Virus record (IMG/VR): IMGVR_UViG_3300006735_000018 | Span: 1 to 64,000 of that record | Direction: 5' to 3' (one strand) | Source of the DNA: a virus | Length of the DNA: 64,000 nucleotides | In this document: positions 47,450-61,976 of the stretch, piece by piece | How positions within the stretch are numbered: the first letter of the stretch is position 1 | How the letters are laid out: each line of letters opens with the position of its first letter | Made by a program: the position numbers and the translations under genes | Notes under the pieces: model-generated | Database searches by the model: none | What the model saw: the letters and a program-made list of their open reading frames with translations, nothing else | What the model was told of the DNA's origin: nothing

Positions 47450-50400
47450 TTAAACACTTTGTTCATTTCCAAGATAGTCACTACTAAAACTATTAGGGTT
47501 TAGATATGACTTAATTTCTTTAAGATTTTCATTTAACTGATACTTTATTATTTCATAATGTAAGTGAACACCAGTAGAATATCCAGTAGTACCCATAACA
47601 CCTATTTTAGTATTTTTATTAATACTCGAATTTACACCACTATTTGTTATAGTTTCTTCTTTTATATGAGCTAATATAAATTTATATCGAGTAACCGCTC
47701 CCGCAACATATGCCGATAAATCAGTTGGTTTGATGAGAATTTTTTCGATAACTATATGATTTCCATAACCTCCACCACATTTTTTTGCTGTTGCACTAGA
47801 ACCAGGTTTACACCCACTAATTTTACCTGTTATTATACCCGTTATTGGTGATAATAAGTCTATGTCTGTACCTCTAAATTCTGATTTAGGTGAATAATCT
47901 ATTCCTTTGTGTGGTCTTTGACCAATAACCGCACCCGTTGACTCATCAACAATGTCTCTTTGTACCCAGAATGATTGGGCTTCTGTTGGTGTTACTATTT
48001 TACTTAGGTCTACAGGGTCTACTACAGCAAAAGTTAAAGTACTTATATCATCATCACTAATTGTTAACTCTTCAGGTACTGTTAAATTGTGTGGGTCTAG
48101 GTGTGGTGTTGTACTAGATACTGGTGTTTCCTCTAAATCACTATCCATACTTTTAAGTAATGTTTCTTGTATTGAGGATATTAAATCTGTTATTTTAGGT
48201 AGACTAGGTATTCCCACTCTAACACCATTAAAAGTTGTTGACATATCATTAGGTGTAATAGTATGGTTTACATCCATTATCAAATATGGGCCACTAAACA
48301 TAGGTAAATATCTTAGTTGAAAGTATGTTGTTGGTTGTATTAAAGCGTTACCCATAGAAGTTACTTGACATTTATAAGACCTAGATTTATATAGGTTAAA
48401 TAAATTTAGTGAATTAGTGGAAACTTTGGACCCACTGGCCACCTTACCCATATCTTCTAAAATTCTAAAAGATTCACTTGTGTTTGGAAATTCTGACTGG
48501 TCTAACCCAATACTTTCAAAAATTTGTTGATTTGGTATACCAAAATCTACAGCGAAGGCTACAACCTTATTATTTAAATCTTTTTCTTCTTGCCCTTGTG
48601 GTATTGGTTGACATAGTGGGTTTGGACTTACCCTATTTAACACAAAGGTATCATTATTATAACCGTAGGTTGATGTTTTCACATCTAGACTGGTTGATGG
48701 TGGTCCTACATATTGACAGAGATATTTAGGTGATGATAATGTATAGTCAACTGTTTTAAAAGCACCAAACATAGCGTTACCTTGACCCTGTGTGTCGTGT
48801 TCCTCCATATTATAAAAATTAACATAAGAAGGTAGGGGTATAAAATTAAAAAAGTTTTTAGCACACAAAGTACTTACAAAACCACCTATAGTTTGTTTAA
48901 CTGACGTAGATGGGTTATCTGTAAATGGCGTATCTAACCCTAAAAATTGGTATATGTCTATAACCGCGTCATTACCAATATCTATATTACCCCTATCTAA
49001 GAACATAAATTTTTCAAATTGTGTATTATAAGAAGGTAGAGCCTTAGAGTTTGTTGGTGTTGGTGCATTCAAATCTTCTCCTTGAACTTGAGTACCTGAT
49101 ATCCATTTATCGTTAAATGTTTTAAATACTTGGTATAACTCTAATTTAAGATTGTCCGCAACAATTTTAGGTCTACCATCATCTTTACCACCATCATTAT
49201 TATTAGAATTATTTAATCCTTTTGTTGGGTCTAGTTTTGCTACCTGTTTGAATAATTCATTAACATAGTATTTATCATAACTTATAAGATTATCTAAATA
49301 GGTATTTAATCTGTTAGAAAATTCTGATTTTGACAATCCGTTAACCGCTGTTGGGTTTGTACGTAAAGTTTCTGTTAGATATTGTTTAAGTATTGGTGCG
49401 AATTGTCGTGCTAGGGTTGGTGAGATATTGAAGTTTTTAAAGAAGTCAAAACATATAGCTGTAGCGTTATTGTGTGCAATATCAATACCCACATCTCTTT
49501 TAGGTAAAACAGTTCGACTAATAATAAACGTAAAGGTAATATCAGGGGTACCACCCGGATATAGTGATGCGTCATAACTTTTCAACTCCATTACTGGAAT
49601 TAAAGGTGCTTTATCTAATATATAATACATTAATTGTTTTGTAGATATTTTAGGACCACCAGGTCCTGTAGGACTTACAACAATATCCCAACCATTAACA
49701 GAACCATGTTTATATATTACTTTTTGTTTTAAAAATATTCTACTTATAGTTAAGAAATTTTTATACTGTGTTTTAGCAATATCTATAGTTTTATGTGTTA
49801 AATTACCGTTTGGTCTGGCGTCAATATCTACCTCAGCGTCTATACTATTTTTATCTACAACCATTAATTTTTTAAATATAGATTTAAAGGTTGTAAACTC
49901 ACCTTCTACTACTGTAGCGTTTGGATTTGTTGGTTCACAAAAATTTAAAAATTGTGTTTCAAACTCATTTAAAACCTGTTCAGGAAAAATAGAAAGTATT
50001 TCTGTGATATCATCATAATTGGTGGTTGTATTATCAGTATTGTTAATATTCCAAGCTTGTTGATTTGGTTGGGTGGTGTCTATTCTTTTAAAGTAATTAC
50101 TGCTAGGTACTCTCCCATATAACCCACCATATTGTAATGGTATACTTCCTGGTTGTGTAACATCAAACGCCCCATAACCAGCTCCACCCCATAAAAATCT
50201 TGCACTACCATCAAAACCAGCTGTATTTATATTGTCCTCCATGAAACTTAAATCGGTATTAACTAAAGCACCAGCTGAAGGATATAATATATAATATGGG
50301 TCTGTAGCTGGGTCTATTTCTGTAATTCCTTGTGTACCCACATTAGTGGAGTCTATAAAAGTGGAATAAAAATTATATTCTATACCGTTTTTAGAAAAGG

Positions 50401-53400
50401 TTAAATCTTCTTCTTTTTCAAGTTCCATACCACCAGCTACTATACCTGTAAACATATTATTTACATTAGTTGAACCTGGTACCCAACTACCAACACTAGG
50501 TAGTATAGTTTTATCAGTAACAATTGTATGTACAGCATTTATTAGTCTAGGCCAAAAACCTAAGGTTATTTCTTCAGTATTTAAACCTGGTAATATATTA
50601 CCATTATATGACCAATCATACCAACCCATACCATTTGCAAATGATGGGTCCGCATACCACTCATTACACCTAATATTACCATCTATTCCGGTTCCACCAC
50701 CATCACCACCACCTAATCCACAAAATGTACTATTTTCAGGAGCTATAGGACCATTTTTATATTCATGCCATATGGAACCTATTTTTAAAATAAACGAATA
50801 TGGTAGTTCATGATAACCAGCTAATTGTTTTATAGCTTGAGCTACATAAGCTCCATATTGGTGTTTACCTTGGTATTCTGTTATTACTTTTTCTAATGTA
50901 CTAGTAACTGGTAGAGAATTTAAAAAGAGGTATGCCGCATCTTTGTAGGGTTCTGGGTTACCAATTTGTTCTTCTGTAAAAGCTTTATATATTGCATTAG
51001 CAAACCAAGGTGTATTCATCATAGAAACTATTTGTGATGAAAATGAGTTTGAGGTATAGTTTATACCGTCAGTAGTACTTTGTAATTCAATGGTAGGTTC
51101 TTTAGTTGTGTAGTATTGTTCCCAGTTATCAAAAGTGGTAAATGTACTAACATAATCCCAATCACCCTCAACAACCTCTAACAAACTACCATAAACAGTA
51201 TCTACATCCCAATTTAAATTAGTATAATATTGACATGATTTACGAAATCCAACGTCGTCTCCAATTGCTCTTGTCGCATAAACATTTGTTTGTGTGTCTA
51301 TTTGTAAAACATCTATTTCAAAGAATTTTTCAGCGGTTACATTGGCTGAATCAGACAATTTGCTCCTTAAACTAGTTAAATTACCAATATTAAATGGATA
51401 AAAATCAAACCACCAATCTTGTGTTTTTTTACTTTCTAGAAAAAGTTTTTGATACTTTACATAACTACCATTTTCAGTAAATATTTCAACAACACTAGAT
51501 TCCGGGTACAACCCATAAGATGTGTCAATTATGTCGTTTGGTTTTGAATTAAAACTACTTAGATATGGGGTGTTAATATGTCCATTTTCCCATAATAAAA
51601 ATTTATCCTGTGAGTCTTCTGATAAAATATTTATTAAAGAATTATAGTCTATGTTATTATCTTTAAAAAATTCTTGTAAATTAAAATCACTTTCAATAGC
51701 CACCATTAAATTTTTAGCATCATTTTGTGCAGCTTCTAATAATGTATCAACAATTTGTGATGGTTTAGATTTATAACCTGTAATACCCACATAATTAGTG
51801 AAGTCACTTGCCCTATCTAATATTTCCCATAATATACTATTTTTAACAGTGTAACTATAAGCCTTTTCTATAAAAGGAAATTGTCTTACAGATAAAGCTA
51901 TTTGTCCAGTATACCTTACTTCATTATCAGATTGAAATGGTACTTGGTTGACTCTGGAGTGAATTGCTTTTGTATATTCTTCTATGAACTCTACTTCAGG
52001 CCACCATAAAGCATTTTGTGCGTTAGTTTCTGAAAGACTACCGGCAGCTCCTGGATATTGTAAAACATATCTATTTTCATTGTCGTCATATTGATAGTAT
52101 TGTGGCCAAGGAAAAACCTCCTTACCACCCTTAACACTATCTTCATATCCTTTCTTATTTGTTATTACGGACTTTACCCTTTCTGGTGTTGTTCTCTGTT
52201 CAAACGCCTTTGTATGAACTCTATCCATCAACCTTAAATAGGTGTCAACACCTGCAATAACAACACTCATTAAATTCCTAATTGATGGGTAAAATGATAG
52301 ACTTTGTTGGAATACTGTTTTTAGTTTATCACTAGCTTCAGTTTGTGCTTTTTTATAATTTTTTTCAAATTCTTCCAATACTCTACCATAAACACCCCCA
52401 AAACTTTTTGGTGAATCAAATAAAACGTACCAACCTTTGGAGTCTGGTTTTAATTTACTAATATCGTTAGAATTTGTATTTACAGCTCTTTGGTTTTCTA
52501 CAGTAAAATCTTTAATTAAATTTACAGCCTCTTTTCCAGTTAAACCAAAAGTAACATTATCCCCCAATTGTTTTTTGTAACCCTCTATTATATATTTTAA
52601 TTTAGATTCAGCATTACTAATGTATTCATCTGTGATTTCTTTAAGTCTAAAAGCGTGAGCTACTACTTTTTTATCATCACTATCTGGATTACCAGTAGAA
52701 CCCAATGTCATATCTAATAATTCTTCACGACTTTCATCTATAAAGTTTTCCATCCAACCATTAGTACCTCTTATAGCGTTCCAAAAATTTTTTAAGTGTT
52801 CTTGATATGTTTTTTGGTCATTACTAAATCTTAAGTCTGCTTTACTAAAGTTTTTTTTAAGGTTATCGGTAAAACCCTCAACCTTACCTATCAATTCAAA
52901 AATTGTGAGGTGTGGAAAATCTTGTGGTATTAATTTCTTTTTTTTATATATCCCATAAACATCATCCATAATTTTTCTACCTAATCCTTTAGGTGTTTCT
53001 TCATTGTTTGATTGTTTAACTACTGGGTATAGGTAAGGAGCTAACATAGCTTGTTGTAGATTAATATCATTTAATAAAGCTATGTGATTACCGATAAAAG
53101 TACCTGTAACATTATAGTCACCAGAATTACTATCAAAATTAGCTTGGAAGTTTGTCATAGCTAATTGATACTTTACAGCTTTACCGTAGTAACCCTTTAC
53201 GGTTAACTCAAATTGTGGATAGGGTAAGTGAAAAAATGCTGTGTAAGGTGTGTTTGTCTCTGCTTGTTCAAATAAAGTTTTACCTCTAACGTCAGTAAAA
53301 TTTATAGTAACTTGTGGGACAAATGAAGAACTTATTTTTATATCTATGTTTGTTATACCAAAACCCTGAAAATCACTTTTATTTTCTATACTTTTAGTAA

Positions 53401-53770
53401 AAAAAGTTTGTCCTTGTTCGTTAGTATCTTCGGTACGTACTATTTTATTTACCGATGGGTCGGTAAACGCGTCTGTCCAATCACTATCTAAAGATTTTTT
53501 ATTTTTAGGTTTTAAAAAGTTTATTTCACCATCAAATAAATCAACCTTAACTCCACTATCAGAAGCCCCCTTACCTTGAATTAGTTTAGACCTAGGTATT
53601 ACTCTAGCTGTTAAATTTACATATATAACTAAGTCTTCGTGTCTAACTAGTCTATCTTCAATACTTTGTCCGTCAGCACTCTGTATCTTATTAGGGTCTA
53701 TTAGAATTAGATTATCACAAACTTGTTTTGTATAAACACTTTCACTAGCGTTAAGAATATCATCTGCCAT
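47450..53770 (-). CDS. Giant baseplate hub protein with C-terminal M23 peptidase (tail lysin)
   Basis: This 2106-residue protein is the largest in the window. The N-terminal region (about 140-270) has a hub-like beta domain: GFGITNIDIKISSSFVPQVT, then PQFELTVKGYYGKAVKYQL. A long helical segment (about 270-560) and a very long central region follow. The C-terminus (about 1950-2085) is a complete M23/LytM peptidase: RPHKGID gives H1954 and D1958, LAHI gives H2035, and HLHYEI gives H2069 and H2071. M23 enzymes cut peptidoglycan cross-links, so the hub probably drills the wall during injection. It replaces the separate gp27/gp5 pair of T4 with one chain. The start overlaps the gp53-like gene by 11 bases. 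Confidence 0.75.
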   Translation of the reverse strand: MADDILNASESVYTKQVCDNLILIDPNKIQSADGQSIEDRLVRHEDLVIYVNLTARVIPRSKLIQGKGASDSGVKVDLFDGEINFLKPKNKKSLDSDWTDAFTDPSVNKIVRTEDTNEQGQTFFTKSIENKSDFQGFGITNIDIKISSSFVPQVTINFTDVRGKTLFEQAETNTPYTAFFHLPYPQFELTVKGYYGKAVKYQLAMTNFQANFDSNSGDYNVTGTFIGNHIALLNDINLQQAMLAPYLYPVVKQSNNEETPKGLGRKIMDDVYGIYKKKKLIPQDFPHLTIFELIGKVEGFTDNLKKNFSKADLRFSNDQKTYQEHLKNFWNAIRGTNGWMENFIDESREELLDMTLGSTGNPDSDDKKVVAHAFRLKEITDEYISNAESKLKYIIEGYKKQLGDNVTFGLTGKEAVNLIKDFTVENQRAVNTNSNDISKLKPDSKGWYVLFDSPKSFGGVYGRVLEEFEKNYKKAQTEASDKLKTVFQQSLSFYPSIRNLMSVVIAGVDTYLRLMDRVHTKAFEQRTTPERVKSVITNKKGYEDSVKGGKEVFPWPQYYQYDDNENRYVLQYPGAAGSLSETNAQNALWWPEVEFIEEYTKAIHSRVNQVPFQSDNEVRYTGQIALSVRQFPFIEKAYSYTVKNSILWEILDRASDFTNYVGITGYKSKPSQIVDTLLEAAQNDAKNLMVAIESDFNLQEFFKDNNIDYNSLINILSEDSQDKFLLWENGHINTPYLSSFNSKPNDIIDTSYGLYPESSVVEIFTENGSYVKYQKLFLESKKTQDWWFDFYPFNIGNLTSLRSKLSDSANVTAEKFFEIDVLQIDTQTNVYATRAIGDDVGFRKSCQYYTNLNWDVDTVYGSLLEVVEGDWDYVSTFTTFDNWEQYYTTKEPTIELQSTTDGINYTSNSFSSQIVSMMNTPWFANAIYKAFTEEQIGNPEPYKDAAYLFLNSLPVTSTLEKVITEYQGKHQYGAYVAQAIKQLAGYHELPYSFILKIGSIWHEYKNGPIAPENSTFCGLGGGDGGGTGIDGNIRCNEWYADPSFANGMGWYDWSYNGNILPGLNTEEITLGFWPRLINAVHTIVTDKTILPSVGSWVPGSTNVNNMFTGIVAGGMELEKEEDLTFSKNGIEYNFYSTFIDSTNVGTQGITEIDPATDPYYILYPSAGALVNTDLSFMEDNINTAGFDGSARFLWGGAGYGAFDVTQPGSIPLQYGGLYGRVPSSNYFKRIDTTQPNQQAWNINNTDNTTTNYDDITEILSIFPEQVLNEFETQFLNFCEPTNPNATVVEGEFTTFKSIFKKLMVVDKNSIDAEVDIDARPNGNLTHKTIDIAKTQYKNFLTISRIFLKQKVIYKHGSVNGWDIVVSPTGPGGPKISTKQLMYYILDKAPLIPVMELKSYDASLYPGGTPDITFTFIISRTVLPKRDVGIDIAHNNATAICFDFFKNFNISPTLARQFAPILKQYLTETLRTNPTAVNGLSKSEFSNRLNTYLDNLISYDKYYVNELFKQVAKLDPTKGLNNSNNNDGGKDDGRPKIVADNLKLELYQVFKTFNDKWISGTQVQGEDLNAPTPTNSKALPSYNTQFEKFMFLDRGNIDIGNDAVIDIYQFLGLDTPFTDNPSTSVKQTIGGFVSTLCAKNFFNFIPLPSYVNFYNMEEHDTQGQGNAMFGAFKTVDYTLSSPKYLCQYVGPPSTSLDVKTSTYGYNNDTFVLNRVSPNPLCQPIPQGQEEKDLNNKVVAFAVDFGIPNQQIFESIGLDQSEFPNTSESFRILEDMGKVASGSKVSTNSLNLFNLYKSRSYKCQVTSMGNALIQPTTYFQLRYLPMFSGPYLIMDVNHTITPNDMSTTFNGVRVGIPSLPKITDLISSIQETLLKSMDSDLEETPVSSTTPHLDPHNLTVPEELTISDDDISTLTFAVVDPVDLSKIVTPTEAQSFWVQRDIVDESTGAVIGQRPHKGIDYSPKSEFRGTDIDLLSPITGIITGKISGCKPGSSATAKKCGGGYGNHIVIEKILIKPTDLSAYVAGAVTRYKFILAHIKEETITNSGVNSSINKNTKIGVMGTTGYSTGVHLHYEIIKYQLNENLKEIKSYLNPNSFSSDYLGNEQSV

Positions 53771-54078: not shown

Positions 54079-55170
54079 TTACGTAATACTTATATTTTTT
54101 CTTATTTTTAGGTTATAACTACTATTATTGGTACCCATAATTGTAGAATCGAAAAACCTTCTAACTAATGATAACTCACTATTACTTTGTGTAAAGGTAA
54201 CTTCGAAGTTATCTACAGCTTTAGGTATAGATTTAACTTTTTCTAATTGTTCTGGAATTTCTGTTTTACCAAAATGTTTTTCGTATTTTTTTGTATCGTA
54301 ATTTAAAAGTGTTATCGAAAATTTTAATAAATTTATTCTAAATTTTTCTGATATTTCTTTTTTTACCCCATCACTATATTTTCTTTTTACTTTGGTTAAC
54401 TCTTTTATTAATTCATTATTTCTATAAAAAATTAAATTTTCAGCATAACTATATCTAACATGGGAATCCATATATCTAATAATTTCGTCAGTCATTAATT
54501 TATCCATAAAGAATAAGTATTCGTTTGGGTAGGTTAACTTATTTGTGTATTCTGGTGTTACAGAACCAAACATATAAGAACAAAAATTACCTATAGTATT
54601 TGTTGTTGCGGAAACATCACTTAATAAGTTAGTGGTGCTAGTTCCTGTGGTTAAAGTATAACTTACCAAACCATTATTAGAACTACCAGTTAGATACCCA
54701 CCAACATTTGCAAAAACTAAATTAAGTTTGTCTATATTTTTAGATAAATCTAATTGTCTATCTCTTAATTCTACTAAAAACTCAACTAATAAAGTTCTTA
54801 ACTCTTTCCAAGAACTTTTAGAATGTTTTAATAAAACTTTTTTAACATATTCTCTGTCTAAATCACTACTTCCAAAAGGTAGTTCTTGTTGTATACCTGT
54901 TGTTTCAGCTGTTATAGAGTTTTTTAATTCCACATATTTTTCATCTAACCTTTTTAAAGAATCCTGTGGAAAACCTACTAGGTTTATACTCCTATTCATT
55001 ATATTGCCCCATTCATAACTTACATATCTAAAAGTTTCTTCTAAAACACCATGTCCTTGTTGATTGTATAAATCTATAAAACTAGTATTTAAAAATTCAC
55101 TGTAATTTTTTGAGCTAGTTAAAAAATTATTATAAAGTACTTTATATTTTGATTCTCCTGTAAGTGCCAT
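54079..55170 (-). CDS. Tail/baseplate protein of unknown role
   Basis: The 363-residue protein is mostly helical and charged. An N-terminal region includes YKVLYNNFLTSSKNYSEFLN and a helix-rich segment (VKKVLLKHSKSSWKELRTLL). A threonine/serine-rich loop (about 170-195) separates it from a second helical half ending in a beta strand (SELSLVRRFF). It abuts the 1001-residue cap-like gene by 1 base and the gp53-like gene by 1 base. In contractile tails this position usually holds hub-tube or wedge assembly proteins, but no family is recognised. Confidence 0.45.
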   Translation of the reverse strand: MALTGESKYKVLYNNFLTSSKNYSEFLNTSFIDLYNQQGHGVLEETFRYVSYEWGNIMNRSINLVGFPQDSLKRLDEKYVELKNSITAETTGIQQELPFGSSDLDREYVKKVLLKHSKSSWKELRTLLVEFLVELRDRQLDLSKNIDKLNLVFANVGGYLTGSSNNGLVSYTLTTGTSTTNLLSDVSATTNTIGNFCSYMFGSVTPEYTNKLTYPNEYLFFMDKLMTDEIIRYMDSHVRYSYAENLIFYRNNELIKELTKVKRKYSDGVKKEISEKFRINLLKFSITLLNYDTKKYEKHFGKTEIPEQLEKVKSIPKAVDNFEVTFTQSNSELSLVRRFFDSTIMGTNNSSYNLKIRKNISIT

Positions 55171-58100
55171 TATTCTGTTTCTAGATGTCCTTCACCACCT
55201 CCTTCAGTATCCCCCTCAGAGGTTACTGTTGGTCCTTCTGGTTTTTTAAAGAAGTTAACGAAATTATCAGCTATTTGGTCTAGTGACATTGTAGCCTCTG
55301 GTATAGTTTGAGGTTGAGCTCTTTCATCGTAAAGTTCTGTATTCGCAAAGTAACTAAACGATAAAGCGTTTTGTAATTTACTAACTGGACCTTCAAGACT
55401 TTGTCCACCAATAAATTTAAAGTTAGTTTGTACACTAACAATCATTGGTTGTACCCCCACACCTTCTGGGTTTAAGTCTAAAAGATTTTCATCATAAGAA
55501 TAACTAACAGAATCAAATACAACTTTAGAATGGTAAAAATCACCTATTCTTAACACACATACCGGTGGTGGTCCAAAAGCTGTGTTATCAGCATCTACAA
55601 CACTAGTCCCTTGTTCTGTCACAGTAGGTATTGTTTTACCTGGTCTTACACATTGTAACATAAAAGTTAATCTAGAGTTAAGTCCTTCTGGTGTCATAGA
55701 ATGAAAAGCTGGGTGAAAAAATTTCAAATTATCTCTTAGTGACTGGTATACAAAGGGGTATTGTTCTCTTAAAAAGGTAAAGTAGTTTGCTTCACCTAAC
55801 AATTTTCTAATAACACTAGTTATGGTATTTCTTTTATCTTGTGCTCCAATTCTAAATCCACCAGTAACTGTACCTTGGTCTACATTATCAACATTAATTT
55901 GAGCATTTTCAGCATCAGTCTCTTGATTATTTTCTATATTCTGTGCTTCTTCTGTAGTTAAATGACCACCCATATCTTGTTCTTCTGATAAATTATTTAA
56001 AACAGTATCCTCAGCGTCATTATGTACATCATTGGTAACCTCTTGGGACCCACCTACTACAGCTGTCTGTAAAGCGTTAAGTACATCTAAACCTATATTC
56101 GGGTATTGTTGTGCTAGTTGGTATATGTCAAATTTTCTACATCCAGCAAAAAAAGCTTCCAATACAGCATCTGCCTCCGCATCACTCATACCTTTTAACT
56201 GCATATCCACTATAGCGTTTAGTGTTGATGGATGGTCAACAACTATCTTCCAAGATAACGTACCTAACCTTTCTGTGTGGTTGTATGTGTATATAGGTTC
56301 CGGTCTACCTAAAAAATTAGTACTACTCCAACTAGCAGAGTTTGTATCCCCTACTTGTATATCATATGGTGGAAACCACATTATTCTACCACCGTTTGGT
56401 CCTTTTTCTGAAGCTGGTAAATTGCTTTGTTCTCCGGTACCTCTCCATGATAAATTTTCAATAGAGAACATATATTTTTTAACTTTAGTACCTTCAGGCA
56501 TACTTGTAGATTTACCACCATCTCTATTTGTTGGTGCTATATTTAAATTAAATGTAGAATCTAATATAGAATTTGTATTTTTCCATTGATTACCTTCAGA
56601 CCTAACTAAATTACTATATGTGGAATATGTTCTATCTTTAGTCCAAGCTCTACAATATTCCACACAATTCCAAACTACCTCACCTGGTGTAAATGAAGTT
56701 ACTCTAGAACCTTTAGATATGTTTTTATATCCATCATTAAATACCTTAGAAACTTGGTCTATCGCGTTACCAGCATGTTTCCATTTTGCCCCACCGTAAG
56801 CCGGTGCAGAATCCATAAGATTTTGGGTGTAGTCTAATAATCCCCCCTTTTTCTTAGGTTTTAAATCTGACCTTGTTGAGTAGAATTGCATTGATTGTTC
56901 ACCTGAAGATATTGAATTTCTTCCGTACCAAGTGAATCCACCCTCTATGGTACCACCATCTGTTAATGCTTTCCCTAAAGGCCCTATTTGGTAGTATCTC
57001 CATAAAGCTCTACCTTCCACATTATCAAACTCTTTATAAACTTCGGAAGGACCATAAACTAAAGCTCTAATTTCTCTACCAAAAACATCTTTAGGTGTAG
57101 CTTCTATAGGTGACTGTATTAGACTAGGTTCTGTATTTTTACTACCCACATAATAGTGAGCTATTGGTGCTTTTACCGATGGGTCTACCTGTACTCTAGT
57201 GTAATCAGGTCTAAATATATTGTAGTTAAGATTATTAAATAACTGAGACTGTTGGTCTTTCCCCATAAATTCTATAAACTTGTCAGATGGTGAAGGTACA
57301 CTAGATGGTGTGTTAGGTAATGGGTTAGACCCTGTTATACCATTCCATATACCATTTAAAATATTACCCGCTTGTGTAAAAAAGTCATCTTGTGAAATAT
57401 TATTAGCTCCTTGACCAACAATACTATTAATATTTAAAGGCATGGCTGGTGTAGTATAAAATCCTGGTATTGGTGATTGTATAGAGTATACACCTTCTAA
57501 TCTAGATAGGTAGTCTGACTTTGGTGGTATTATTGACCCAGGTGATGTTGTTATATTTAGAGTAGCGTCACCATTTTCACTTATATTAAAATCAAACTTA
57601 GCTAGATTAAAACCTAAATTATCTTTTAAATATGGAAATGAAGACTTTATCAACATAGAGTCATCCAAAACCATAGAATTTAAGGTCACTAATTGTCCAT
57701 TATTACTATTAACGGATTGCATTATTTCAATAGCTGTGTAATCGGAATATCTAAAAGAATCAAAAGATAGCCCTGGAACAAACCCTTGTGGTTGTAGTGT
57801 GTTAGGACTTATGTATTGTAGTTGAGCTTCGGTAACTAAATTAACCACGTTTATTGATAGTGGGTCTCCGTAGCCACTTTGTGGCCCATATTTGTTTACT
57901 AAGAACTGTGTTTCCTTTAAAGGAATTCCGTTCATATCATTAACATCTTCAGGTATTGGGGAATCTTTAACAGAAACCCAATTTTGTGATGACACAACTA
58001 CACTACCTGGTTGTTGGTCACCGTTTGGTGGAATTGGGTTTCCTCTATTTAAATAAGAACCATCGAGATTTCTAGCAAGTAAAGCTTCTCTAAGTTTTTG

Positions 58101-58175
58101 CGTACTTAAAACAGAAATATTAAAATCTCCTTGAGCAAATGGGTATGTGATTCCTGTATTTTTACCTACTGACAT
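55170..58175 (-). CDS. Large tail-tube-cap / baseplate structural protein
   Basis: The 1001-residue protein ends in a region (about 850-965) with VCVLRIGDFYHSKVVFDSVS, LLDLNPEGVGVQPMIVSVQT and KLQNALSFSYFANTELYD, a beta-rich module like the gp48/gp54 tube-initiator group that starts the inner tail tube on the hub. The N-terminal 250 residues hold QFLVNKYGPQSGYGDPL and beta sequence. The middle has an acidic, disordered insertion (about 720-770). It lies right after the tape measure gene, matching the place of tube-cap genes. It is far larger than T4 gp54 (320 residues), so extra domains are present. The cap assignment is inferred. Confidence 0.6.
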   Translation of the reverse strand: MSVGKNTGITYPFAQGDFNISVLSTQKLREALLARNLDGSYLNRGNPIPPNGDQQPGSVVVSSQNWVSVKDSPIPEDVNDMNGIPLKETQFLVNKYGPQSGYGDPLSINVVNLVTEAQLQYISPNTLQPQGFVPGLSFDSFRYSDYTAIEIMQSVNSNNGQLVTLNSMVLDDSMLIKSSFPYLKDNLGFNLAKFDFNISENGDATLNITTSPGSIIPPKSDYLSRLEGVYSIQSPIPGFYTTPAMPLNINSIVGQGANNISQDDFFTQAGNILNGIWNGITGSNPLPNTPSSVPSPSDKFIEFMGKDQQSQLFNNLNYNIFRPDYTRVQVDPSVKAPIAHYYVGSKNTEPSLIQSPIEATPKDVFGREIRALVYGPSEVYKEFDNVEGRALWRYYQIGPLGKALTDGGTIEGGFTWYGRNSISSGEQSMQFYSTRSDLKPKKKGGLLDYTQNLMDSAPAYGGAKWKHAGNAIDQVSKVFNDGYKNISKGSRVTSFTPGEVVWNCVEYCRAWTKDRTYSTYSNLVRSEGNQWKNTNSILDSTFNLNIAPTNRDGGKSTSMPEGTKVKKYMFSIENLSWRGTGEQSNLPASEKGPNGGRIMWFPPYDIQVGDTNSASWSSTNFLGRPEPIYTYNHTERLGTLSWKIVVDHPSTLNAIVDMQLKGMSDAEADAVLEAFFAGCRKFDIYQLAQQYPNIGLDVLNALQTAVVGGSQEVTNDVHNDAEDTVLNNLSEEQDMGGHLTTEEAQNIENNQETDAENAQINVDNVDQGTVTGGFRIGAQDKRNTITSVIRKLLGEANYFTFLREQYPFVYQSLRDNLKFFHPAFHSMTPEGLNSRLTFMLQCVRPGKTIPTVTEQGTSVVDADNTAFGPPPVCVLRIGDFYHSKVVFDSVSYSYDENLLDLNPEGVGVQPMIVSVQTNFKFIGGQSLEGPVSKLQNALSFSYFANTELYDERAQPQTIPEATMSLDQIADNFVNFFKKPEGPTVTSEGDTEGGGEGHLETE

Positions 58176-58217: not shown

Positions 58218-60398
58218 TTATGATGGTGTAGTAACATTTAAACCAGCTAGACTAGTACCTATAGCCTGTATTACTGTTGGGTCTAGTGCTGACATTATTT
58301 GTTTTGGTGTTAGTCTTATTGTATTACCATCATACATAATTTCTAAAGGGTTGAATACGACGTTAACCGTGTTACCCCCACCACCAGTAGTACTGTTGTT
58401 TATATAATTAGATATAACGTTTTGTCCTTCTGGTGTGTTTTCTAAATAACTATTTATCATATTAGGGTCATACCCTGGATAAGCTCCACCTGTGGCCGCC
58501 CCACCAGTAGAACTACCTCTTTCTGTATTTCTCATAGATTCATCAAGAGCTGGTGATACTGGACTACCAGACATACCTGGAACTCTATCTAAGAAATTTG
58601 GGATAAATTCACCAAAATCACCCATTATGTCCACTAAATTATTACCAGTCGCTCCAGTTCCTGCGGTAACCCCACCTAAACCTTCACCAAGTAAAAAATT
58701 ACCTAATCCAGATTGAGCTAGTTCACCAGCAAAATCTTTAGCTGTAGTACCTAATAATCCAGATGCTGCAGCTTGTGTCATTAAATTTTGTATTATAGCT
58801 GTATTTGCTGCCATACCCTCTTGTACCGAAAGTTGGGCCTTGTTAACATCTTCTAGGTTCATTGTATCCTTTTGGGATTGTTTTTGTATTTTTGCTAGTA
58901 GTTCTCCACCATCTTTCGCAAAAACCTCACCTAATTCATCAAAAGATAATTCTTTATCACCAAGAGTTAACGAAAACGTACCGTCAGGATTAATGTCAGC
59001 CATAGAAGCTATTAATTCTTTATCCTCTTGACTAAGTTCTGGTATACCACCTAATTTACCAATTGCTTGTGTTCTTTTAGCGGCTTTAATTGCTGTTTCT
59101 GCAAGATTATTATAATCTTGACCTGTAGCTTCAGCTATAGATTTTAACCTCATTCTTTCCCCTGGTGATATACCAAACTCACCCGTTTCTTTATTAAAGG
59201 TTACCGCACTTTCTGCTGTTTTTACAATAGCATCCTGTAGACCCTCGACATCATTTTGAGCCATATACATTAACTGGAATGGGTCTAATAGTTCACTAGC
59301 GGCACCACCAATCATTTGTAATTTTGAAGCCATTTCAATCGCACCTTCAGGTGTAAAAGCTTTGTCTGCCATCTGTAACGCGTTTTCGAAATTATAACCC
59401 AATACTTGAGCTTTAGCTACCATTTCAGATAAACCGTTTACACCGTTTTGAAAACCGTAAGTGTTTATCTTATCTATGTTAGCTTCTACTTGTGGTAAGA
59501 ATTTTGAAACTACAGCACCAAATCTACCAGCTGTAGCTATAGCGTCTTTAGTAATTTCTACAGCTTCTTTGGAACCGATACCAATTCTATCAAACTGTGC
59601 TATAGTATTTGACATATCAATGTCGTATATTTCTTCTAGTTTTGCTGCACCGACTATAGCTTCTTTTGGTAATATAAAAGCCCTACCGGTATCTTCGGCT
59701 GTTTCTTTTAACATCTTCATAGCGTCGTTAGCGGTTAAAGCCCAACCCATAAAGTCCGCTGAAGCATCGGTTACAGTTTTTATAATATCATCCATGAAGA
59801 CTTCATCCATCCCCATAGTGTTTATTATATCTTTACGCATTTGGTCGGTTAAAGATATAATATCCAAGTATGTACCTAAAGCTTCAGTACTTTTAAACTC
59901 ACCCTGGGCCCCTTGAGCAATTAAGTCAGTCATGTTTTGCATCATCTGCATAGACTCACCTAAAGTTAAATCAGCTTGACTTCTGGCTTGTGATAGTTCT
60001 TTTAACATTTTACCCAGTTCGGTAGATGTTGTAGAAAAATCATTGTAGTCTGACCTTCCAGGGTCATCAGTATCAATACCCTTTCTTCTTAAGTAATCTG
60101 CTACCGCTCTATCAAAACTAGACTGAGTTACTGTAACGTCACCACCACTTTCATCTTTTAAGATTACTTGGTATGATGGTAATGGATTTTTTATTCCTAA
60201 TTTTTTTGCTAATTCTAATGAAACTATATTACCTTTAGGTCCTAATTTTTTAATGGATTTTACCCTAGCAGTATAATTTGGTTCATCTACTGTGTTAAAA
60301 ATACCTAAGGGTACACCTAATTCTGGATGTGAGGCTAAATAGGGTTTACCGTGTGATAGAAACCCCTCAATATGAAGTTGTTTACTTGTATTAAACAT
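58218..60398 (-). CDS. Tail tape measure protein
   Basis: This 726-residue protein is helix-rich with typical tape-measure composition: alanine-rich helical repeats (AIVKTAESAVTFNKETG, DYNNLAETAIKAAKRTQAIG), glycine-rich loops near the C-terminus (GGVTAGTGATGNN, TGGAATGG), and a short beta C-terminus (VNVVFNPLEIMYDGNTIRL). Tape measure proteins set tail length and help pass DNA into the cell. At about 0.15 nm per residue, 726 residues would span roughly 110 nm (rule of thumb). It follows the gp26/gp51-like pair, as expected for a chaperone-tape-measure order. The first 80 residues (MFNTSKQLHIEGFLSHGKPY...) are atypical and may be a separate domain. Confidence 0.75.
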   Translation of the reverse strand: MFNTSKQLHIEGFLSHGKPYLASHPELGVPLGIFNTVDEPNYTARVKSIKKLGPKGNIVSLELAKKLGIKNPLPSYQVILKDESGGDVTVTQSSFDRAVADYLRRKGIDTDDPGRSDYNDFSTTSTELGKMLKELSQARSQADLTLGESMQMMQNMTDLIAQGAQGEFKSTEALGTYLDIISLTDQMRKDIINTMGMDEVFMDDIIKTVTDASADFMGWALTANDAMKMLKETAEDTGRAFILPKEAIVGAAKLEEIYDIDMSNTIAQFDRIGIGSKEAVEITKDAIATAGRFGAVVSKFLPQVEANIDKINTYGFQNGVNGLSEMVAKAQVLGYNFENALQMADKAFTPEGAIEMASKLQMIGGAASELLDPFQLMYMAQNDVEGLQDAIVKTAESAVTFNKETGEFGISPGERMRLKSIAEATGQDYNNLAETAIKAAKRTQAIGKLGGIPELSQEDKELIASMADINPDGTFSLTLGDKELSFDELGEVFAKDGGELLAKIQKQSQKDTMNLEDVNKAQLSVQEGMAANTAIIQNLMTQAAASGLLGTTAKDFAGELAQSGLGNFLLGEGLGGVTAGTGATGNNLVDIMGDFGEFIPNFLDRVPGMSGSPVSPALDESMRNTERGSSTGGAATGGAYPGYDPNMINSYLENTPEGQNVISNYINNSTTGGGGNTVNVVFNPLEIMYDGNTIRLTPKQIMSALDPTVIQAIGTSLAGLNVTTPS

Positions 60399-60421: not shown

Positions 60422-60583
60422 TTACCTTCTGCTTTTATTACGAGCTTGTTCGATTTCTTTATTTCTTTTCTCTATTTCTTCTACAAATTTATCTAAATAA
60501 AATCTCCTTTCAAATATTGGCATATTTAAAATATCTTCTCTAGTAAAATTAAAGTTTTTTGTTAAGTAGTAAATCTCTCCCAA
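60422..60583 (-). CDS. gp51-like baseplate/tail assembly ORF, possibly reached by +1 frameshift
   Basis: This 53-codon ORF (from TTG at 60583) reads GEIYYLTKNFNFTREDILNM, then PIFERRFYLDKFVEEIEKRN and a basic tail. The DILNMPxxERRFYxD pattern is that of small phage tail-assembly proteins of the gp51 type. There is no ATG before the conserved region. The reading frame is open back to 60622, overlapping the end of the gp26-like gene by 29 bases in the +1 frame. It may start at TTG, or be made as a C-terminal extension of the gp26-like protein by +1 slippage. It directly precedes the tape measure gene. Coding is well supported by the motif; the start mechanism is open. Confidence 0.6.
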   Translation of the reverse strand: MGEIYYLTKNFNFTREDILNMPIFERRFYLDKFVEEIEKRNKEIEQARNKSRR

Positions 60584-60593
60584 CAGGGCATAC

Positions 60594-61352
60594 CTATAGC
60601 CCGAAGAAAGGACGAAAAAAGTTCAAACCGAAATTAATATTGTATGTTATTTTTTCACCAGAAGGTGCGATAGCTACTTTACTAACATCTAAACCTGGTT
60701 CTACAGAAGTTAAAAACTTTTTAATTTCTTGAGCGTCTCTTAAAGGTAAAGTATGGATTGTGCTAGATATAGTCATTGGGTCTTTTTCACCACTAATTTC
60801 TACAATACTTTTTTCCAAACGTTTAGTAGCCATAGGTTTTACTTTCATACCTTCATAACTTTTTTCTAACTCTGATAATTCTAATTTATCTTGTGGTGTC
60901 AATAATCTTAATTTACAAACCTTACCTGAAACTGGTAGTTTATATTCAAATAAACCGTCTTTGTCTGGTTCTACAGTAACTTCTTTAGTTTTTAAAACAG
61001 ATAAGTCTTCAACGTGTTCAAACTCTTTACCTGTTTTTGGGTCTGTTAATTTAAATCTATATTCTGGACCAAAACCTGTATTTCTTAGAAAAACAAAAAT
61101 AGCTTGTTTATCACATTCAGCTAAATTCATTACATCAACATCTTTATCTAAAACTTTTGCCTTTAATAGCGTATCCATTAACTCACCTGATTGGGATAGA
61201 CTAGGTGATGTTAAAATATTTTCATCAGCTGCTGTTAAATAAGCTACCTTTAAAGTTTTTTTATTATTAGCGTAAAAAATACCTTTAGATGGTAATTCTA
61301 CAATATCGTAAGATATGTTAGGTGAAATTTCTGGTGTTTGCATGTTTTCCAT
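60594..61352 (-). CDS. T4 gp26-like baseplate/tail assembly chaperone
   Basis: From the ATG at 61352 the protein has 252 residues; a TTG at 61373 and a second ATG at 61343 are alternatives. It carries the T4 gp26/T4_baseplate signature: YDIVELPSKGIFYANNKKTL, KVAYLTAADENILTSPSLSQ, then AECDKQAIFVFLRNTGFGPE. The central half (about 105-155) is a beta insertion (LTDPKTGKEFEHVEDLSVLK). It precedes the gp51-like ORF and tape measure, so it probably acts as a tail chaperone comparable to the G/GT pair of siphophages. The last codons contain AAC TTT TTT CGT, a candidate +1 slip site. Confidence 0.75.
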   Translation of the reverse strand: MENMQTPEISPNISYDIVELPSKGIFYANNKKTLKVAYLTAADENILTSPSLSQSGELMDTLLKAKVLDKDVDVMNLAECDKQAIFVFLRNTGFGPEYRFKLTDPKTGKEFEHVEDLSVLKTKEVTVEPDKDGLFEYKLPVSGKVCKLRLLTPQDKLELSELEKSYEGMKVKPMATKRLEKSIVEISGEKDPMTISSTIHTLPLRDAQEIKKFLTSVEPGLDVSKVAIAPSGEKITYNINFGLNFFRPFFGL

Positions 61353-61487: not shown

Positions 61488-61976
61488 TTAGTAAACTAAT
61501 ATACATCTATCTGGTCTTAATGTTGCTGCTATGTTAGCCATACCTTCATCACTATAAGATAAATCGTTAAAATTAACATCGGTTAAGAAACAACCTTGTA
61601 ATACCCATTTTTCTACAACAACACCTGTTGGGTCTAACATCTCTAAATCTAGATTCTTTTTATATCCTGCAGCATAACCCATTCTACCAGTTACCGACTC
61701 AGCGTGTAATCTAACCCACTCCATAAGTGCTTGTGAAGCAGAAGGACCAATAGGGTCTCTAAACGTAACATTTATTGTGTTCCAAGTAAATCTACCAGCT
61801 ACGTAAGTTGATGTGTTTAGAAAAGGTATCTCTACGGAACCTATAGTAACTTGTGGTCTTGATGTACTTTCTACGTACCATTCGTTAATACCCAGTGAAG
61901 AATCAAATCTCATTATAAACCTATTCTTTTTCTTTGGTTCATAAGGTACGGGCATTTTCATTAATAAATCGGCCAT
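61488..61976 (-). CDS. Tail tube protein, gp19 family
   Basis: At 162 residues this matches T4 gp19 (163 residues). Features include PYEPKKKNRFIMRFDSSLGI, STSRPQVTIGSVEIPFLNTS, TFRDPIGPSASQALMEWVRL and YKKNLDLEMLDPTGVVVEKW, then LQGCFLTDVNFNDLSYSDEG, the classic order of the T4-like tube fold. It polymerises as hexameric rings inside the sheath. It has a 100-base A/T-rich gap upstream and a strong terminator downstream, so it may be transcribed as a monocistronic abundant mRNA. High confidence. Confidence 0.92.
   Translation of the reverse strand: MADLLMKMPVPYEPKKKNRFIMRFDSSLGINEWYVESTSRPQVTIGSVEIPFLNTSTYVAGRFTWNTINVTFRDPIGPSASQALMEWVRLHAESVTGRMGYAAGYKKNLDLEMLDPTGVVVEKWVLQGCFLTDVNFNDLSYSDEGMANIAATLRPDRCILVY

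What the first reader, a model, noticed from the sequence alone, without database searches (positions are those of the whole stretch)
60422..61352. Candidate +1 programmed frameshift joining gp26-like and gp51-like tail chaperones
The gp51-like ORF lacks an ATG before its conserved region and is open in the +1 frame back into the end of the gp26-like gene (to 60622). The upstream frame contains AAC TTT TTT CGT at about 60623-60612, where tRNA-Phe could slip from TTT to TTC. The order chaperone, out-of-frame extension, tape measure mirrors the G/GT arrangement of siphophages. This would place the gp26/gp51 pair of contractile tails in the same assembly logic. A TTG start at 60583 is the simpler alternative.
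Basis: partly seen in the sequence, partly recalled or inferred. Interest (0 to 1): 0.75.

Follow-up and report, generated by a model that had tools for sequence, protein, structure and literature searches.

The report
Frameshift-made phage tail assembly chaperone
A marine virus of bacteria appears to make two versions of a tail-building helper protein by having a fixed share of ribosomes skip one base at a conserved slippery spot; the two-version strategy is known, but this forward-skipping form, shared by a large group of environmental phages, seems undescribed.

Summary
At window 60623-60612 (minus strand) the gp26-like gene reads AAC TTT TTT CGT, and the gp51-like ORF lies in the +1 frame, open from 60622, with no ATG before 60523. 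In 87 non-redundant relatives (most 41-80% identical, some under 30%) the second ORF is always in the +1 frame and open through the same Phe codons. The slip codon is TTT in 85/85 with a Phe pair. The next Arg codon is CGN in 72/72, against 17% elsewhere in these genes. The TTG alternative fails: relative L006 has no start codon there. Cyanophage/KVP40-type relatives instead carry a -1 heptamer TTTTTT[C/T] with gp51 in the -1 frame (61 of 62). T4 gp51 aligns along the whole fusion and T4 gp26 along the short form, so T4 encodes both forms as separate genes. Best explanation: programmed +1 frameshifting makes the short and long tail assembly chaperone (lambda G/GT logic). Prior art: Vladimirov et al. 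2022 identified T4-like chaperone genes, and later papers cite it for poly-T -1 signals and the two-gene form. Apparently new is the clade-wide +1 version at a UUU_CGN site like influenza PA-X. No protein evidence was available.

The parts
60594..61352 (-). gp26-like gene, short form (TAC-N), 252 aa
   Evidence: phrog_150 baseplate hub E=4e-9; PF12322 23.6 bits, just under cut-off 24.5; AlphaFold model pLDDT 86 matches annotated phage baseplate hub / T4-like hub assembly proteins in BFVD, E down to 1e-26
60612..60623 (-). shift site AAC TTT TTT CGT: P-site TTT re-pairs on TTC, A-site rare CGT
   Evidence: sequence; conservation statistics over 87 non-redundant relatives
60594..60616 (-). overlap read in both frames, nucleotide-invariant in 6 relatives
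60422..60613 (-). +1-frame gp51-like tail (TAC-C), 63 aa after the slip; together with 246 aa of gp26 gives a predicted 309-aa fusion
   Evidence: phrog_634 E=0.001, DUF6760 E=0.0036; three-helix AlphaFold model pLDDT 91.5; conserved FxLSSxYR..E..YL..D..MP..RR in 29-31 loci
60583..60585 (-). TTG codon, the rejected alternative start
   Evidence: not conserved: L006 has CTT TTA at this place and no ATG/GTG/TTG from the upstream stop to the MPVFERR motif
61488..61976 (-). tail tube gene (gp19-like) upstream
   Evidence: phrog_4542 tail tube E=8e-32
58218..60398 (-). following gene, 726 aa, in the tape-measure position; identity unconfirmed
   Evidence: position only; no family hit; weak BLASTP to annotated or positional tape measures, E=0.007-0.008 for a single comparison

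Best explanation
The locus makes a tail assembly chaperone in two forms from one mRNA. Most ribosomes stop at 60596 and give the short form (gp26-like, TAC-N, 252 aa). A minority stall with tRNA-Phe on UUU in the P site and the rare Arg codon CGU in the A site; the tRNA re-pairs one base forward on UUC and reading continues GUC CUU UCU..., giving a 309-aa fusion (TAC-NC) with a helical gp51-like domain. By analogy with lambda gpG/gpGT, many short copies would coat the tape measure and the few fused copies would bring in tube subunits. Shown: the anatomy, its conservation, and the homology to T4 gp26/gp51. Inferred: that shifting occurs, its ratio, and the chaperone function.
For: Phase: second ORF in the +1 frame and open through the slip codons in 85/85 with a Phe pair, plus two with a single TTT C (LR756508, immuto). 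Slip codon TTT 85/85 (body 79%, p=2e-9); A-site Arg CGN 72/72 (body 17%, p about 1e-56), including CGG 27 and CGC 16, which are 2% and 0.8% of body Arg codons; base after TTT is C or T in 83/85. CGN versus AGR is not dictated by the downstream +1 reading, since the first Arg base only changes the +1 codon on which the slipped tRNA sits. The base before the T-run is T in 2/85 against 19.9 expected, as if avoiding a -1 heptamer. The search patterns that found the relatives lay outside the junction. No ATG from the upstream stop to 12 codons past the slip in 57/85. +1 rather than -2: TTC TTT (3 cases), TTT CTA and TTT CTT allow re-pairing only forward. In-frame homologue: T4 gp51 matches phrog_150 (E=3e-84) and phrog_634 over 147-246 (E=1e-23), T4 gp26 matches phrog_150 and not phrog_634; both are PF12322; T4 gp51 aligns across the junction.
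Against: No expression data. Structure around the site is weak and heterogeneous (no RNAalifold consensus). Relatives are not independent, so p-values are nominal. Many relatives have an ATG, GTG or TTG somewhere in the +1 ORF (only 10 of 85 have none), so internal starts are not excluded everywhere. No solved structure matches either domain. The tape measure is not identified.
Confidence: 0.9

Rival explanations
1. gp51 is a separate small protein started at the TTG (60583), perhaps by translational coupling after the gp26 stop.
For: TTG is present with AGG 9 bases upstream; Ackermannviridae relatives have gp51 ATGs close to or overlapping the gp26 stop and no clear shift site; 12 of 85 relatives have an ATG within 12 codons of the site.
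Against: L006, 80% identical, has CTT TTA there and no ATG/GTG/TTG until the MPVFERR motif. The conserved +1-frame residues LSSxYR begin upstream of the TTG, right after the Phe pair, and overlap the gp26 end. It does not explain TTT 85/85 or CGN 72/72.
Confidence: 0.04
2. The shift goes two bases back (-2) rather than one forward; the product would hold one more Phe.
For: TTT TTT allows a -2 re-pairing of tRNA-Phe in most members; the first Phe is TTT in 82 of 85.
Against: TTC TTT (3 members), AAC TTT CTA and AGC TTT CTT do not allow a -2 match but do allow +1. The rare A-site codon fits +1.
Confidence: 0.04
3. Transcriptional slippage on the T-run gives mRNAs with altered length.
For: A run of 6-8 T is present in most members.
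Against: TTC TTT CGN, TTT CTA and TTT CTT members lack the long run yet keep the +1 phase. Slippage does not explain the CGN requirement or the lack of T before the run.
Confidence: 0.02

Closest known systems
T4-like tail assembly chaperones (Vladimirov, Gautam, Davidson 2022, Virology 566:9-15; not readable here, known from citations in PMC12846349 and PMC10885494 and from memory)
   Same: Same gene pair (gp26/gp51), same short/long logic; poly-T frameshift signals reported in T4-like TAC-N genes; some T4-like phages use two genes instead.
   Different: The signals cited are -1. The window's clade is +1 with TTT TTT CGN and is too divergent to be called T4-like by DNA or close protein similarity; I could not check whether that paper covers it.
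Lambda gpG/gpGT (-1, widely conserved in long-tailed phages; PMC5009743)
   Same: Overlapping ORFs after the tube gene; [quoted passage not shown]
   Different: Opposite direction, different site, no detectable sequence or structural relation found here.
Influenza A PA-X shift site UCC_UUU_CGU (+1; PMC8310308, PMC5009743)
   Same: UUU in the P site, CGU as a seldom-used A-site codon, +1.
   Different: Unrelated gene; the preceding codon here is UUU, and all four CGN codons and UGG occur in the A site.
HSTV-2 haloarchaeal myovirus, probable +1 tail frameshift (PMC5009743)
   Same: A contractile-tailed virus with a likely +1 shift in the tail chaperone genes.
   Different: Site and gene relation not compared here.
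Two-gene G/GT form in phage 0305phi8-36 (PMC2147016)
   Same: Long and short forms as separate paralogous genes, as in T4 26/51.
   Different: That form does without frameshifting; the window keeps it.

Membership tests
Frameshifted tail assembly chaperone (G/GT-type) | overlapping ORFs, second without its own start, in a fixed shifted frame | tested here: met
[quoted passage not shown]
   TTT 85/85, CGN 72/72
Frameshifted tail assembly chaperone (G/GT-type) | position between tube gene and tape measure gene | tested here: inconclusive
   tube gene upstream; next gene not identified as tape measure
Frameshifted tail assembly chaperone (G/GT-type) | short and fused proteins made in a fixed ratio | not testable with these tools
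   needs mass spectrometry or a reporter
Frameshifted tail assembly chaperone (G/GT-type) | binds tape measure and tube protein, absent from the virion | not testable with these tools
   needs binding assays and virion proteomics
T4 gp26/gp51 (phrog_150, phrog_634, PF12322) | profile match of gp26-like | tested here: met
   phrog_150 E=4e-9 over 8-254; PF12322 23.6 bits, below cut-off 24.5; tree places it with gp26 relatives
T4 gp26/gp51 (phrog_150, phrog_634, PF12322) | profile match of gp51-like | tested here: inconclusive
   phrog_634 E=0.001 over profile 72-120, weak but in the right place
PA-X-type +1 shift site | UUU in P site, rare CGN in A site, +1 phase | tested here: met
   window AAC UUU UUU CGU; CGT 0.14% of codons

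The most novel reading that the evidence does not exclude
A large, undescribed clade of contractile-tailed phages uses +1 frameshifting at UUU_UUU_CGN, a homologue of the -1 site of cyanophage/KVP40-type relatives. The same Phe-Phe hinge in one protein family has thus been used for both shift directions, steered by the base before the T-run (T required for -1, avoided for +1) and by a rare A-site codon, and lost by gene duplication in the T4 lineage.
Probability: 0.55. Interest if true: 0.65.

Novelty: new variant of a known kind. Interest (0 to 1): 0.5.

Why it matters
Annotation pipelines miss the second ORF or call it a hypothetical gene, so a core tail assembly protein is missing or misnamed in many phage genomes. 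+1 sites are hard to recognise; about 85 natural variants of one site with a clear rule (UUU then a rare CGN, no U before the run) give a ready test set for +1 frameshifting in bacteria. The comparison of +1, -1 and duplicated forms in one family makes the evolution of shift direction directly testable.

Tried and rejected
DNA similarity to named phages: none. Foldseek and PDB profile searches gave no solved relative. Consensus RNA structure across the +1 set: none, although window-wise folding z-scores peak just at the site. One DUF6760 genome search, for a possible link to extracellular contractile injection systems, rang nowhere. No tRNA genes in the window. Full text of Vladimirov et al. 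2022 is not held.

Full report
Observation. The window is part of a 92,962-base IMG/VR virus record. On its minus strand the tail tube gene (61488-61976, phrog_4542, E=8e-32) is followed by a gp26-like gene, ATG 61352 to TAG 60594, ending ...GLNFFRPFFGL*. Its last codons read AAC TTT TTT CGT CCT TTC TTC GGG CTA TAG. The +1 frame is open from 60622 and reads TFF VLSSGYRYALLGEIYYLTKNFNFTREDILNMPIFERRFYLDK..., ending at 60422. There is no ATG before 60523.

Close relatives. Six IMG/VR loci were found with the gp26-like protein; five reach the junction, and their junction DNA TTTTTTCGTCCTTTCTTCGGGCTATAGG is unchanged. In six sequences (window, L002, L003, L005, L006 and L021), codons of invariant residues are identical in all six for 8 of the last 10 codons against 39 of 135 elsewhere (Fisher p=0.002). 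In L006 the TTG of the window is TTA and no ATG/GTG/TTG occurs between the upstream stop and the MPVFERR motif, so the simpler start-codon account fails there.

Distant relatives. Phages at 26-30% identity (Microcystis phage Mel-JY01, Flavobacterium phage immuto, Listeria phage LIS04, Streptococcus phage GXN1, metagenomic LR756508) all have the second ORF in the +1 frame, open back to the same Phe codons. Eighty more IMG/VR loci (41-72% identity) and eight metagenome-assembled contigs, several binned as Flavobacteriales, show the same in nearly every readable case. The search patterns lay in the middle of gp26, so junction conservation is not a search artefact.

Statistics on 87 +1 members kept at 90% identity or less. 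85 have two Phe codons, the other two a single TTT followed by C. The slip codon is TTT in 85/85 (79% in gene bodies). The next codon, where Arg, is CGN in 72/72 (17% in bodies); CGG and CGC, nearly absent from bodies, make up 43 of the 72. The +1 ORF is open through the site in 85/85. The codon before the T-run ends in T in 2 cases against 19.9 expected. In the window itself CGT is 0.14% of codons, CGC and CGG do not occur, and none of 44 other in-frame TTT-TTT/TTC-TTT pairs is followed by CGN. These tests treat sequences as independent, which they are not fully, so p-values are nominal; the pattern is nevertheless nearly without exception.

Direction. Members with TTC TTT, TTT CTA and TTT CTT can re-pair tRNA-Phe only forward, so +1 is preferred over -2. 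The site UUU_CGU with a slow A-site codon is that of influenza PA-X (PMC8310308).

The other half of the family. In cyanophages (P-SSM2, Bellamy, P-TIM68, S-N03), KVP40, Atu_ph07, Desulfovibrio phage 7757, Rhizobium phage RHph_I1_9 and 80 IMG/VR loci, gp51 lies in the -1 frame. Of 62 non-redundant members examined, 61 carry T TTT TT[C/T] 0-8 codons (58 of them 0-1) before the gp26 stop; the codon before ends in T in 61/61 across six amino acids (39.6 expected). Folding z-scores dip right after the site in this set and around the site in the +1 set. The requirement for T in one group and its avoidance in the other argue that both sites are real and kept apart. In this set an ATG within 12 codons is common (41 of 61), so an extra independent start is possible there; 13 of 61 have no ATG, GTG or TTG at all.

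T4. T4 gp26 and gp51 are both PF12322/phrog_150, and gp51 also matches phrog_634 over 147-246. In an HMM of virtual -1 fusions T4 gp51 aligns through the junction, and T4 gp26 ends at it (GLKEFFELL). The gp26 and gp51 proteins of T4 and 44RR form one clade (99/77) next to KVP40 inside the -1 group, although these branches are long. T4 therefore carries both forms as separate genes.

Prior art. A review states that G-T frameshifting is conserved in long-tailed phages except T4 (PMC5009743), and T4 gp51 was described as essential and of unknown function (PMC3004832). Vladimirov et al. 2022 (Virology 566:9-15) identified the T4-like chaperone genes; it is not held, but later papers cite it for poly-T -1 signals in T4-like TAC-N genes (PMC12846349) and for the two-gene short/fused form (PMC10885494). 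From memory its abstract names genes 26 and 51. So the chaperone identity, the -1 form and the T4 duplication are known. What I did not find described is the +1 clade and its site rule.

Exceptions. Ackermannviridae relatives lack a clear slippery heptamer; in Vibrio phage 207E48.1 the gp51 ATG overlaps the gp26 stop, so frameshifting is not universal in the family. Atu_ph07 and LR756511 (both -1) fall on the +1 side of the tree, but the first is a long branch.

Structure. The short form models well (pLDDT 86) and matches annotated phage baseplate hub and T4-like hub assembly proteins in BFVD (E to 1e-26), with nothing in the PDB. The tail is three helices (pLDDT 91.5) with no PDB match.

Verdict. 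Programmed +1 frameshifting producing short and long tail assembly chaperones: supported by comparative evidence at about 0.9; protein-level proof is missing.

Noticed in passing
L191-L193 (Vibrio phages D531 and 207E48.1, Aeromonas phage phiA8-29): Ackermannviridae-type gp26/gp51 pairs lack a clear slippery heptamer (CTT TTC or CTT TTT); in 207E48.1 the gp51 ATG overlaps the gp26 stop: possible secondary loss of frameshifting.
   Followed up: partly
+1 set, 12 bases upstream of the slip codon (for example L033, L060, L087): The conserved Gly codon is GGG in 67 of about 79 members although GGG is 16% of Gly codons in these genes; with GTN GAN it resembles a Shine-Dalgarno-like stretch. The window clade has GGT instead.
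   Followed up: partly
L013 (LR756511.1): A -1 type member (T TTT TTC, shift site about 16 codons before the gp26 stop) that falls beside +1 phages of Firmicutes hosts in the tree: a possible switch of shift direction.
   Followed up: partly
window 60422-60613: The gp51-like tail weakly matches DUF6760 (E=0.003), which I recall from extracellular contractile injection system clusters; those may hold the same chaperone domain.
   Followed up: partly
window 47450-53770: 2106-aa ORF in the tail region with a C-terminal metallo-endopeptidase-like stretch; it could be a tail-tip or tape-measure-like protein.
   Followed up: no
window 55170-58175: 1001-aa ORF after the 726-aa gene without any convincing family match in Pfam or PHROGs.
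   Followed up: no
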